Below are positions 32,016 to 36,915 of a DNA stretch of 40,293 bases, in pieces. The notes beneath the pieces were generated by a model that ran no database searches, was not told where the DNA came from, and saw only the letters and a program-made list of their open reading frames with translations. Position 1 is the stretch's first letter. The number at the start of each line of letters is the position of its first letter. Origin of the DNA: an uncultured Spirochaetaceae bacterium (GTDB lineage: Bacteria; Spirochaetota; Spirochaetia; Sphaerochaetales; Sphaerochaetaceae). The DNA is taken from positions 1 to 40,293 of the forward strand of contig CALXLE010000118.1 of the NCBI GenBank assembly GCA_944389115.1. The letters run 5' to 3'. The translations under genes and the position numbers were made by a program.

Positions 32016-32396
32016 ATGGAAATAATCAGAGACGAACTTATAGCTGCTGCGGAGTCTGTCTACGGAACGAGGCGGCTTACGGATGATTCGGAATGTGGAA
32101 GCGTTGCTGCTGCACTGATTACCGATAAGGGGAATATATACAGAGGTATCTGTCTTGATACTCCATGCTCGCTCGGTTTCTGCGCAGAGCAGGCTGCAAT
32201 AGCCTCGATGCTCACAGCCGGAGAGAACCGCATAGAAGCGATTGTTGCTGTAACGGAAGATGGTTGTATACTCCCTCCTTGCGGTAGGTGCAGGGAATTG
32301 ATGTATCAGGTGAATCATGAGAATATCAGCACACAGATTTTCCTTGAGGAAGGCAGTGCAACGCTGCGAGATCTTCTCCCACATGTGTGGAACTAA
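32016..32396 (+). CDS. Cytidine deaminase-family protein
   Basis: A 126-residue zinc deaminase. Zinc ligands are Cys56 with catalytic Glu58 in FCAEQAA, and Cys89 and Cys92 in PPCGRCREL. The length is typical for tetrameric cytidine deaminase and for blasticidin-S deaminase-like relatives; CAEQ in place of CAER makes the substrate less certain. The fit with the nucleoside importer at 22386-27181 suggests cytidine/deoxycytidine salvage. The ATG is apparently leaderless (see the promoter entry). It shares its promoter region with the ABC ATPase gene, which points the other way. Confidence 0.9.
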
Positions 32397-32509
32397 ATCA
32401 GCAATACGTACAATGATAGTAAAAAATAAGCATATATGTATAAGTTTGAAGCAAAGAAAAATTTAACATTTTATTTGCATTCCTTCATAACCTGTGAGAC
32501 AATTAATTT

Positions 32510-32605
32510 ATCCGGAAGGATGATTGATCCAGCACCTTCACGGATTCTCAGTAGAATGGGAACAAGGAGGTTTGCCACTGGTGCTCAGCCAGTGGTGATT
32601 TTTTT
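32510..32605 (+). ncRNA. Candidate small RNA with its own promoter and terminator
   Basis: TTGCAT (32475-32480) and an extended -10 TGA-GACAAT (32495-32503) are 17 bases apart and would start transcription near 32510. The next 96 bases hold ATCC-GGAA-GGAT (32510-32521), an alternative GGAT-GATTG-ATCC (32518-32530), ATTCT-CAGT-AGAAT (32544-32557), and a strong terminator CCACTGG-N7-CCAGTGG (32575-32595) followed by seven T (32599-32605). No plus-strand gene follows for 2.4 kb, so this is not a leader of a nearby gene. It lacks the SRP RNA, 6S and tmRNA signatures I know. It could alternatively be the long 3' end of the deaminase transcript. Confidence 0.45.
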
Positions 32606-32653
32606 GAATCAGTTCAGAAATTTGTGAGGTTCCTGGGATTTATATACCAGAAG

Positions 32654-32717
32654 AGGCTTACGGCTATCGAACATGATATGGGGAAATCTGTCTCGGTGTA
32701 AGTGCAGCCGTAAGCTT
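32654..32717. repeat. Long imperfect hairpin in the intergenic region
   Basis: GCTTACGGCT (32656-32665) and AGCCGTAAGC (32706-32715) are exact inverted copies; a G:T and an A:T pair extend the stem to 12. The 40-base loop holds a second stem (ACA-GAT with ATC-TGT, 32671-32691). No T-run follows on either strand, so it is not a plain terminator. Confidence 0.5.
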
Positions 32718-32975
32718 ATAGTCTTAAATAATATCATTGGTTCCATTCGACCAACTTAGAGCTTGGTGTAAAGCGGCATGGCTGAGTATTCCATTCATAT
32801 CGAGATTATAGCCTGCCTGAAAGACAGTGCTTTCCGGGATTTCCAAGTACAGCGTAATCGAGCATCAGTCATCCATCCCATTTCTAAGAATATATTCATA
32901 TTAAACCTGTTCTAAACTTAATGACCATTGCTATTAATTCTCTTCGCAGTTGGGTAATTTTCAGCCATTTCAGTT
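32718..32975. other. Intergenic remainder before the YolD gene, no confident gene
   Basis: TTGGT-N8-ACCAA-N8-TTGGT (32737-32767) can form two mutually exclusive hairpins. Two short frames overlap in opposite directions: a plus-strand ATG frame starting at 32779 of 46 codons, and a minus-strand open stretch from 32864 down to 32724 of 46 codons. Neither has a ribosome site, and I recognise neither product. The stretch may contain decayed coding sequence. Confidence 0.35.
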
Positions 32976-35024: not shown

Positions 35025-35879
35025 ATGGTGCGCATTCTTCTTGTATTCATATCTGCTATTGCCATCCTTCTGCCGTCATGTACAACGACAGGTAGCAATG
35101 TCTTCTCTTCCGGCAACCGGAAGGCGGATATAGTCGAGGCTCTCTCAACAGAGACGCCGGATGATGGGAAGATGAATCTTGCGCTCGAGCTGCCTTTTGC
35201 CGATACCGTAAGGAATACTCCTGTGCAGACCCAGCCTGCAGCTGAGGAGGAAGCAGCTCCAGTCCAGACTGAAGAGGCAGCAGATGCAGCAGCTCCTGTC
35301 CAGGAAACGGCACCTGATGCTATGGAAGCTGCGGAGCTGGATAATTCGGAAACAATGCCGGAAGAGACAGCGGCAGTAGAAAGTATCACAGTGCCAGAGG
35401 AGATTGTTGAGGCTCCTGCCAACGAGGTAGTGCAGGAGGAGGTAGCCATTCCGGAGCCAACTGTATCAGAGACACAGACTGATAGTACTGCAGTGATTCA
35501 GCAGGAAGAACCGGTAACGGAGGATGTTGTGATCCCTCTCTCTGATGTAGTTGAAACTAATCCCTCAGAGACTACGGCGCCATCCGTACAGCCTGTCACG
35601 CCTTCGATGCCTCCTGCAATGAACAGGCTTATCGTCGATGCGATGATAGCATCGGTCGTCATAGTGATAATGTTCACCGTTGCAACTGCGATAAGAAGTG
35701 CATATAAGATGCCTTTGTCCTATCTCCTTTCGGCAATAATAGCGGTTCTTATCTCATTCCTGCCTTTCGTGATCTGCATCATCATAGGTGGAATGTCCAA
35801 CGTATGGTGGTCGTATTTCCTGCTTCTCCTGTCGTTCTTCATATTCCGTTCTGGAAGGGGACGGAGAGATTCTCGATAG
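35025..35879 (+). CDS. Acidic Pro/Ala/Glu/Val-rich lipoprotein with three C-terminal membrane helices
   Basis: A 284-residue protein I do not recognise. Residues 1-19 form a lipoprotein signal ending LLPSC, so Cys19 should be lipidated. Residues about 45-200 are low-complexity, acidic and repetitive (runs of EE, VQ, PV and TA), probably a disordered spacer. Residues about 202-275 contain three hydrophobic segments (VDAMIASVVIVIMFTVATAI, LLSAIIAVLISFLPFVICII, WWSYFLLLLSFFIF), followed by a basic tail RSGRGRRDSR. A lipid anchor at one end and membrane helices at the other is unusual. The last 41 bases overlap the end of the convergent ROK gene. No clear ribosome site precedes the ATG. Confidence 0.75.
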   Translation: MVRILLVFISAIAILLPSCTTTGSNVFSSGNRKADIVEALSTETPDDGKMNLALELPFADTVRNTPVQTQPAAEEEAAPVQTEEAADAAAPVQETAPDAMEAAELDNSETMPEETAAVESITVPEEIVEAPANEVVQEEVAIPEPTVSETQTDSTAVIQQEEPVTEDVVIPLSDVVETNPSETTAPSVQPVTPSMPPAMNRLIVDAMIASVVIVIMFTVATAIRSAYKMPLSYLLSAIIAVLISFLPFVICIIIGGMSNVWWSYFLLLLSFFIFRSGRGRRDSR

Positions 35880-36915
35880 CCTTAAGCCTCAATAAGAGCT
35901 CTGTGTTGTAGAAGAATGTATCAAGGGCTTTGAGCGCAGCGCCTTCCCTTGCTCCATTCTCTCCGGCAGAAGACCTGTATATGATCATATTCTCTCTTCC
36001 TGGTGGAAGAAGGGATGAGACCAGAGTCTGAAGATATGCGTACATCGCATCTGGCATGGCTGCCATTCTGCCTGTTATTATCACAGAGGAAGCGGAAAGC
36101 GCCTGTGCAGCTTCTGACAGAGCCGCTGCCATAGGCCTGAGCATTACCTTGATCATTTCGTGGTATTCTCTATTGCCGAATAGTGTCCTGTAGCTGTCTG
36201 CCCCAGTCCGGGAGAGTATCACCTGACCGGAGGAAACGGCTTCGAGGCAGCCCTTGCCTCCGCAGCTGCAGTCACCATCCCTCTGTGCCCTGATATGCGG
36301 TAAATCAGGAAGCGGGATCATCATCCCGTTCTTCCTGATTGTCGCTGCGATGGTGTCGGACCATGATATGAAAAGGAATGATTCAAGATCTCCAAGTCTT
36401 GCAACCTCTGCCTCTGCCTCCGCTTCTGCCCGTGAAATGCAGACGGAAGGAAAGGGAAGCTCAATCCTGGTATTGTAGTCTGATGCGATTGCCGCACCAT
36501 AGATGACAGCATCGCCCGCACTCATCTTTCTTATGAGCTTCTGGATATCATCCTGGAAAGATTCTCCCTTGGGAAGCCTTTCATATCGCAGTATCCTTCC
36601 ATGAAGATCAGAGACGGCAACAGAGAATGCCTTCCGGCCTTCCTCGATGGAGAATACACGACCGGCCTTGCTGTTTATGGAAAGAAGGGTTCCGGGACGG
36701 CCTTGGGCTGTCTGTTCTCTTCCTGTTTCCTCAATCAGTCCTTCTTTGATCATCTTGTCGCAGATCTCGCCGATTGAGACCTTATTGATATCAAGACGGC
36801 GGGACAGCTCCGCCTTTGAGCATGTTCCCTTCCTCAGTTCCGAGAGAACCTTCAGCCTGTTGATTCTCCTTGCGTTGTCAGGTCTTGAGAAATCCATACT
36901 GAGATGATAAGCCAT
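35839..36915 (-). CDS. ROK-family transcriptional regulator (NagC/XylR type)
   Basis: A 358-residue repressor-type ROK protein. Residues about 10-75 form a winged helix-turn-helix (CSKAELSRRLDINKVSIGEI, followed by EETGREQTAQGRPGTLL). The ROK fold follows, with the zinc-binding CSCGGKGCLEA intact. The usual phosphate-binding D-x-G near its start reads SIEEG, and the N-D-A-N catalytic region is absent, so it is not a sugar kinase. It should bind DNA and a sugar or amino sugar. It is divergent from htpG and may control itself through the inverted repeat at 36933-36945. An ATG at 36897 would shorten it by six residues. Confidence 0.9.
   Translation of the reverse strand: MAYHLSMDFSRPDNARRINRLKVLSELRKGTCSKAELSRRLDINKVSIGEICDKMIKEGLIEETGREQTAQGRPGTLLSINSKAGRVFSIEEGRKAFSVAVSDLHGRILRYERLPKGESFQDDIQKLIRKMSAGDAVIYGAAIASDYNTRIELPFPSVCISRAEAEAEAEVARLGDLESFLFISWSDTIAATIRKNGMMIPLPDLPHIRAQRDGDCSCGGKGCLEAVSSGQVILSRTGADSYRTLFGNREYHEMIKVMLRPMAAALSEAAQALSASSVIITGRMAAMPDAMYAYLQTLVSSLLPPGRENMIIYRSSAGENGAREGAALKALDTFFYNTELLLRLKAIENLSVPFQNGI

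What the first reader, a model, noticed from the sequence alone, without database searches (positions are those of the whole stretch)
32475..32605. Candidate orphan small RNA with promoter, stacked hairpins and a strong terminator
An extended -10 promoter, about 96 bases with three short hairpins (including mutually exclusive ATCC/GGAT/ATCC pairing), and a stem plus seven T with no downstream plus-strand gene. It matches no RNA family I can name.
Basis: partly seen in the sequence, partly recalled or inferred. Interest (0 to 1): 0.5.

Follow-up and report, generated by a model that had tools for sequence, protein, structure and literature searches.

The report
Conserved small RNA of gut spirochaetes
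The stretch is a small RNA gene not found in the RNA family catalogue, kept with its own promoter, folds and terminator across much of a family of spirochaete bacteria, and its most constant part is the six-letter word (AGGAGG) that ribosomes use to find messages, which suggests that it talks to the ribosome.

Summary
Observation confirmed and strengthened. Window 32475-32605 is a free-standing small RNA gene: extended -10 promoter with 17-nt spacer, hairpin 1, hairpin 2, linker AAGGAGGU, terminator with T7. Covariance models find it in 46 of 48 genus genomes at E<=0.01 and, by my tally, in 89 of 139 genomes and 9 of 22 genera of the family at E<=1e-4. Compensatory changes support the stems in two clades. 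Neighbouring genes change; the next called ORF downstream is on the opposite strand in 18 of 30 loci. So it is unlikely to be a deaminase 3' UTR or a leader. No Rfam family matches. CsrA was not found in 53 family genomes, nor Hfq in 36 genus genomes. Best guess: a Shine-Dalgarno mimic that engages 30S subunits (0.38); antisense or protein binding remain open. No expression data.

The parts
32475..32480 (+). -35 element TTGCAT
   Evidence: Read; in 58 upstream regions aligned on the -10, TT is invariant and TTG present in 45 of 58 at this spacing, 17 nt from the -10 hexamer.
32495..32503 (+). extended -10, TGA GACAAT
   Evidence: the pattern [TC]G.[GA]A.AAT was found upstream of all 59 distinct copies that passed the script's terminator filter (where it was the anchor); L091, which did not pass that filter, departs from it by one base (by eye).
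32510..32605 (+). small RNA, about 96 nt, start predicted from the -10
   Evidence: CM matches at G000:C118:32501-32605 and 32500-32603.
32510..32545 (+). hairpin 1, apical loop UGAUUGAUCCAGCA
   Evidence: MFE fold; 7 of 9 pairs have double-sided changes in A1, 88.9% of cells paired; loop lost or replaced in several relatives.
32546..32561 (+). hairpin 2, UCUCA/UGGGA
   Evidence: Fold; 99.2% of cells paired in A1; 5 of 8 pairs of its main helix change on both sides in A4.
32564..32571 (+). linker AAGGAGGU with AGGAGG (32565-32570); Shine-Dalgarno-like, without a conserved start codon
   Evidence: AGGAGG in 80 of 80 distinct copies; complement ACCUCCUU at 26 places in 8 of 13 genomes, two of them checked as 16S rRNA; start-like triplets 4-12 nt after it in 24 of 80 copies only.
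32572..32598 (+). intrinsic terminator stem-loop
   Evidence: GC/AU exchange at one pair in 7 of 24 sequences of A1.
32599..32605 (+). T7 tail of the terminator

Best explanation
A free-standing, sigma-70-type, intrinsically terminated small RNA gene, inherited mostly vertically in one spirochaete family (existence as a conserved RNA gene: about 0.95; shown by comparative genomics, expression inferred). Proposed mechanism (inferred, 0.38): hairpin 2 and the terminator flank AAGGAGGU, a Shine-Dalgarno mimic without a conserved start codon; it pairs with the anti-Shine-Dalgarno end of 16S rRNA and so occupies, tethers to or competes for 30S subunits, tuning translation when its promoter is on. 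Shown: promoter, stems, constancy of AGGAGG, exact complement in 16S rRNA of relatives, no CsrA detected. Not shown: expression, that the linker is open in the folded RNA, ribosome binding, any effect on translation.
For: 46 of 48 genus genomes and, by my tally, 89 of 139 family genomes at E<=1e-4. Covariation in two clades. AGGAGG in 80 of 80 distinct copies, although hairpin 1 is rebuilt or loses its loop in some lineages. Duplex of the linker with GGAUCACCUCCUUUCU of -11.4 to -16.1 kcal/mol. Anti-Shine-Dalgarno in 8 of 13 family genomes, confirmed as 16S in two. No conserved start codon: 56 of 80 copies have no ATG, GTG or TTG 4-12 nt after AGGAGG, and ATG there occurs in 2. The complement GGCA(N)ACCTCCTT occurs nowhere else in the own genome, and across the genus at 43 non-self sites against 39 for the reversed control pattern (my tally), so no sign of a conserved long mRNA partner. 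CsrA 0 of 36 and 0 of 17.
Against: Predicted openness of AGGAGG is only moderate: median unpaired probability 0.51 without the U tail and 0.26 with it, against 0.40 for all positions, because it can wobble-pair with the U run. The conserved UU and RCC beyond AGGAGG are not explained by 16S pairing, and one lineage (L088) has AGGAGGA. 16S is constant, so covariation cannot test the pairing. Of the 80 copies, 59 were picked by a script that required the motif; 21 were model hits not picked for it. Not counted: L095, the weakest first-model match, which lacks AGGAGG and looks like a terminator-only match, and L020 and L090, cut by contig ends.
Confidence: 0.38

Rival explanations
1. A trans-acting antisense small RNA: the G-rich linker AAGGAGGUU(G) is a seed that pairs with C/U-rich leaders of a few mRNAs, blocking them or freeing a Shine-Dalgarno that such a leader masks.
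For: Hairpin - seed - terminator layout is typical of bacterial base-pairing RNAs (recalled). Conservation runs past AGGAGG into UURCC, longer than 16S pairing needs.
Against: No non-self GGCA(N)ACCTCCTT in the own genome and background numbers across the genus; shorter matches were not tested, and the gene context of the 43 non-self sites was not examined. Hfq not detected in 36 genus genomes (among 60), though a divergent Hfq could be missed.
Confidence: 0.31
2. A protein-binding RNA or sponge: hairpin 2 plus GGA-containing linker, or the hairpin 1 loop, is recognised by an unknown RNA-binding protein.
For: GAACAAGGAGGU resembles the CsrA consensus (recalled); the hairpin 1 loop, roughly UGAUNNNNCCNGCA, is kept in much of the genus.
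Against: CsrA not found in 36 genus genomes nor in 17 RNA-bearing genomes of 8 other genera; 3 of 14 control genomes ring. The hairpin 1 loop is lost in several lineages.
Confidence: 0.17
3. The AGGAGG serves termination or stability only (it can pair with the U tail), and the working part is the hairpin 1 loop or the act of transcription.
For: Consensus folds pair GGAGG with the U run.
Against: Mostly G-U pairs are a poor reason for a constant hexamer; an A tract would do better (inference). The loop is not universal.
Confidence: 0.08
4. Plain 3' UTR and terminator of the cytidine deaminase gene, or a leader/attenuator of a downstream gene.
For: The deaminase gene ends 78 nt before the -35 on the same strand in the window, and a deaminase gene is the nearest upstream ORF in four close relatives.
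Against: Own conserved promoter; other upstream genes on either strand elsewhere; the next called ORF downstream is on the minus strand in 18 of 30 loci; in the window two minus-strand genes follow. In some other relatives a plus-strand ORF does follow within about 150 nt, so a local leader role there is not excluded.
Confidence: 0.05

Closest known systems
Rfam families (release 15)
   Same: Small structured bacterial RNA with terminator.
   Different: No match at gathering score in the window or in 12 loci from 8 genera; best weak hit anti-hemB RF02837, 14.1 bits against a cut-off of 49.5.
CsrB/RsmZ-type CsrA-titrating RNAs (recalled)
   Same: GGA in a single strand beside hairpins.
   Different: One constant linker site, not many; no CsrA gene found in 53 family genomes.
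Hfq-dependent seed-terminator small RNAs (recalled)
   Same: Hairpins, short linker, terminator with U tail.
   Different: Hfq not detected in the genus; the linker is itself a Shine-Dalgarno word.
Anti-SD-motif small RNAs such as the alphaproteobacterial CCUCCUCCC loops (recalled)
   Same: Motif of the Shine-Dalgarno pairing system.
   Different: Opposite sense: here the RNA carries the Shine-Dalgarno, not its complement.
6S RNA and SRP RNA (recalled)
   Same: Stable standalone RNAs; GGAA in hairpin 1 of this species resembles an SRP loop.
   Different: About 96 nt with three short hairpins, no long bulged hairpin; GGAA not in one conserved loop; no Rfam match.

Membership tests
Intergenic bacterial small RNA | own promoter | tested here: met
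   -35 TT at fixed spacing from the -10 anchor in 58 of 58; by sequence only
Intergenic bacterial small RNA | intrinsic terminator | tested here: met
   by sequence only
Intergenic bacterial small RNA | conserved structure with compensatory changes | tested here: met
Intergenic bacterial small RNA | transcript detected | not testable with these tools
   no RNA-seq held
CsrA-titrating RNA | CsrA present in the organism | tested here: not met
   0 of 36, 0 of 17; own genome about 89% complete
Hfq-dependent small RNA | Hfq present | tested here: not met
   0 of 60, of which 36 of the genus and 24 of other families, PF17209; divergent forms not excluded; other genera of this family not tested
cis-regulatory leader | conserved co-directional downstream gene | tested here: not met
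   next called ORF on the minus strand in 18 of 30 loci; varying ORFs
Any Rfam 15 family | score at or above gathering cut-off | tested here: not met
   permissive scan
Shine-Dalgarno mimic acting on 30S | perfect complement of the organism's anti-Shine-Dalgarno | tested here: met
   rests on relatives, since the own draft genome gave no 16S 3' end
Shine-Dalgarno mimic acting on 30S | no start codon at working distance | tested here: inconclusive
   none conserved, but a start-like triplet 4-12 nt downstream in 24 of 80, the window included
Shine-Dalgarno mimic acting on 30S | motif single-stranded | tested here: inconclusive
Shine-Dalgarno mimic acting on 30S | association with 30S subunits | not testable with these tools
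   needs fractionation

The most novel reading that the evidence does not exclude
A core small RNA of a bacterial family that presents a perfect Shine-Dalgarno without a conserved start codon and thereby titrates or parks 30S subunits: a ribosome-directed regulator in bacteria in which CsrA, and in the genus also Hfq, was not detected.
Probability: 0.33. Interest if true: 0.8.

Novelty: new member of a known kind. Interest (0 to 1): 0.52.

Why it matters
It is a well-supported RNA family outside Rfam, in a group for which two searches of the held open-access library showed no small-RNA work. CsrA was not found in 53 genomes of the family, nor Hfq in 36 of the genus. Its most constant part is the ribosome's own recognition word. 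If it binds 30S subunits, it would be a direct RNA handle on translation initiation that can be tested in a cultured relative.

Tried and rejected
Rejected: CsrA sponge; deaminase 3' UTR and conserved downstream leader; known Rfam family; a long hidden ORF (the 63-aa frame over the region spans the promoter, and copies vary from 85 to 121 nt by steps that are not multiples of three); the opposite strand as the transcript (promoter and U run lie on +, and conserved G-U pairs of hairpin 2 and the terminator, would be A-C mismatches on -); phage origin (0 stretches in viral contigs for one pattern); the ATCC/GGAT/ATCC switch (not conserved); a loop-1 to terminator-arm pairing CCAGC/GCUGG (possible in A1, but the loop lacks CCAGC in A5).

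Led nowhere: papers. (5 papers listed, none relevant by listing; 0 papers), seen as listings with starts of abstracts. Of PMC8632094 and PMC11109978 I saw only the passages; no motif of this kind in those passages, and their supplements were not seen. The pattern allowed too short a spacer before the T run and missed the window's own sub-clade; its counts (35 of 139; 29 of 394) are not used for prevalence. Its two hits outside the family (L193, L194) look like chance by sequence and fold. Of the new second-model matches I fetched and read 20; the others were not read.

Full report
What is there. Window 32475-32605 holds -35 TTGCAT, 17 nt, extended -10 GACAAT, a start predicted near 32510, hairpin 1 (32510-32545), hairpin 2 (32546-32561), linker AAGGAGGT (32564-32571), and a terminator with T7 (32572-32605). 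The fold is better than 200 of 200 shuffles (z -3.3); without the terminator it is only mildly better (12 of 200 as good). A consensus promoter scan did not flag the site, and one terminator was found where shuffles give 2.9. The window alone would have left it undecided.

Homologues. Blastn with 32395-32640 against 100 relatives gave strong hits within the genus; 25 of the 37 loci then held carry GGGRACRAGGAGG, and 24 of these (L020 is cut by its contig end) form alignment A1. A covariance model from A1 found 46 of 48 genus genomes at E<=0.01 and 58 of 139 family genomes at E<=0.1. A second model from 43 of the 60 copies then collected found 115 of 139 at E<=0.5. The weak end of that list includes terminator-only matches, so I use E<=1e-4: by my tally 89 of 139 genomes in 9 of 22 genera, training copies included. 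Absence elsewhere in the family may be divergence. That the family is GTDB's Sphaerochaetaceae is my recall; NCBI files Ornithospirochaeta and Bullifex under Spirochaetaceae. One pattern over the genomes of 84,980 species gave 50 stretches, all titled as spirochaetes. The same pattern gave 0 in viral contigs.

Structure. On A1, 95.1% of cells pair, 11 of 24 pairs change on both sides, and no shuffle of 500 reaches any of the five measures; sliding partners by 1-3 columns drops pairing to 32-54%. In the separate clade of A4 (11 sequences), 93.8% pair and 11 of 28 pairs change on both sides; further pair types are reached by 27 of 500 shuffles, the other four measures by 0 or 1. The A4 structure was written from one of its rows, which favours it in the sliding control. 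RNAalifold on the 43-sequence alignment gives a hairpin at the place of hairpin 2 and the terminator, though the structure kept for model R2 has only 8 terminator pairs. Hairpin 1 is variable: its loop, roughly UGAUNNNNCCNGCA, is shared by much of the genus but lost in some lineages.

The constant part. AGGAGG, between hairpin 2 and the terminator, is present in 80 of 80 distinct copies. Of these, 59 were picked by a script that required the motif, and 21 were model hits not picked for it. No start codon is conserved after it: 24 of 80 copies, the window included, have a GTG, TTG or ATG 4-12 nt downstream, at differing places, and 72 of 80 have a start-like triplet 0-1 nt after it, too close to serve (the judgement on spacing is general knowledge). 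The 16S 3' end ACCUCCUU, its complement, was found in 8 of 13 genomes at 26 places; the five without a hit, the own genome among them, are drafts. Two of the places were checked and are 16S rRNA. Against a simple reading, the computed openness of the hexamer is moderate and depends on the U tail (0.51 without, 0.26 with, mean of all positions 0.40).

Promoter and neighbours. With the -10 as anchor, -35 TT occurs at one spacing in 58 of 58 and TTG in 45 of 58. Upstream and downstream genes change (ORFs were called mechanically). In 22 of 30 loci a protein that by eye is the window's HtpG (HSP90) lies among the next three ORFs. In 18 of 30 the very next ORF is on the minus strand, in 15 of these of one family that by eye resembles the window's ROK gene (35839-36915, PF00480). 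The window keeps the order RNA - lipoprotein-like gene - ROK - HtpG, with a YolD-like gene (below Pfam's cut-off) and an impB/mucB-type polymerase gene on the minus strand between. The RNA stays in a neighbourhood but is not tied to one downstream frame.

What it does. CsrA was found in 0 of 36 genus genomes and 19 of 24 genomes of other families, and in 0 of 17 RNA-bearing genomes of 8 other genera of the family. Hfq was found in 0 of 60, 36 of them of the genus and 24 of other families; the other genera of this family were not tested. The own genome has no other site GGCA(N)ACCTCCTT, and the genus has 43 non-self sites against 39 for the reversed control (my tally; their gene context was not examined). 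Among the partners I could test, 16S rRNA is the one that matches the constant core. I therefore put a Shine-Dalgarno mimic first (0.38), an antisense RNA with a short G-rich seed second (0.31), and protein binding third (0.17).

Novelty. No Rfam 15 family matches the window at gathering score, nor 12 loci from 8 genera; permissive scanning gave only weak hits. Two searches of the held open-access library showed no paper on small RNAs of this group. It is a new RNA family of a known kind as far as these searches go; only the proposed way of working would be unusual.

Noticed in passing
window 32606-32930, minus strand: Frameshifted remnant of an ISL3-family transposase (relative in L031, PF01610; tblastn 42% over 76 aa) begins right after the T7 of the terminator. 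The same element end directly follows the terminator of the same RNA in genome G046 (L013); in 5 of 10 sequences printed (L001, L013, L282, L287, L288) a run of at least six T lies just before it, so the element may favour T runs.
   Followed up: partly
L013-L029, upstream of the promoter: A motif like GTTAA - about 7 nt - TGTGAAAA at a nearly fixed distance from the promoter, by eye in 14 of the 16 loci of this range shown: a candidate operator.
   Followed up: no
G002:C31:51113-51214 and G002:C71:5655-5757 (L065, L080): One draft genome holds two different copies of the RNA; either a duplication or a mixed bin.
   Followed up: no
family genomes: CsrA was found in 0 of 53 genomes of this family but in 19 of 24 genomes of other families of the class.
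   Followed up: yes
L224-L228, hairpin 2 loop: In one genus the apical loop of hairpin 2 contains GAGAGGAG or GGGAGGGA, a second G-rich Shine-Dalgarno-like word in the same RNA.
   Followed up: no
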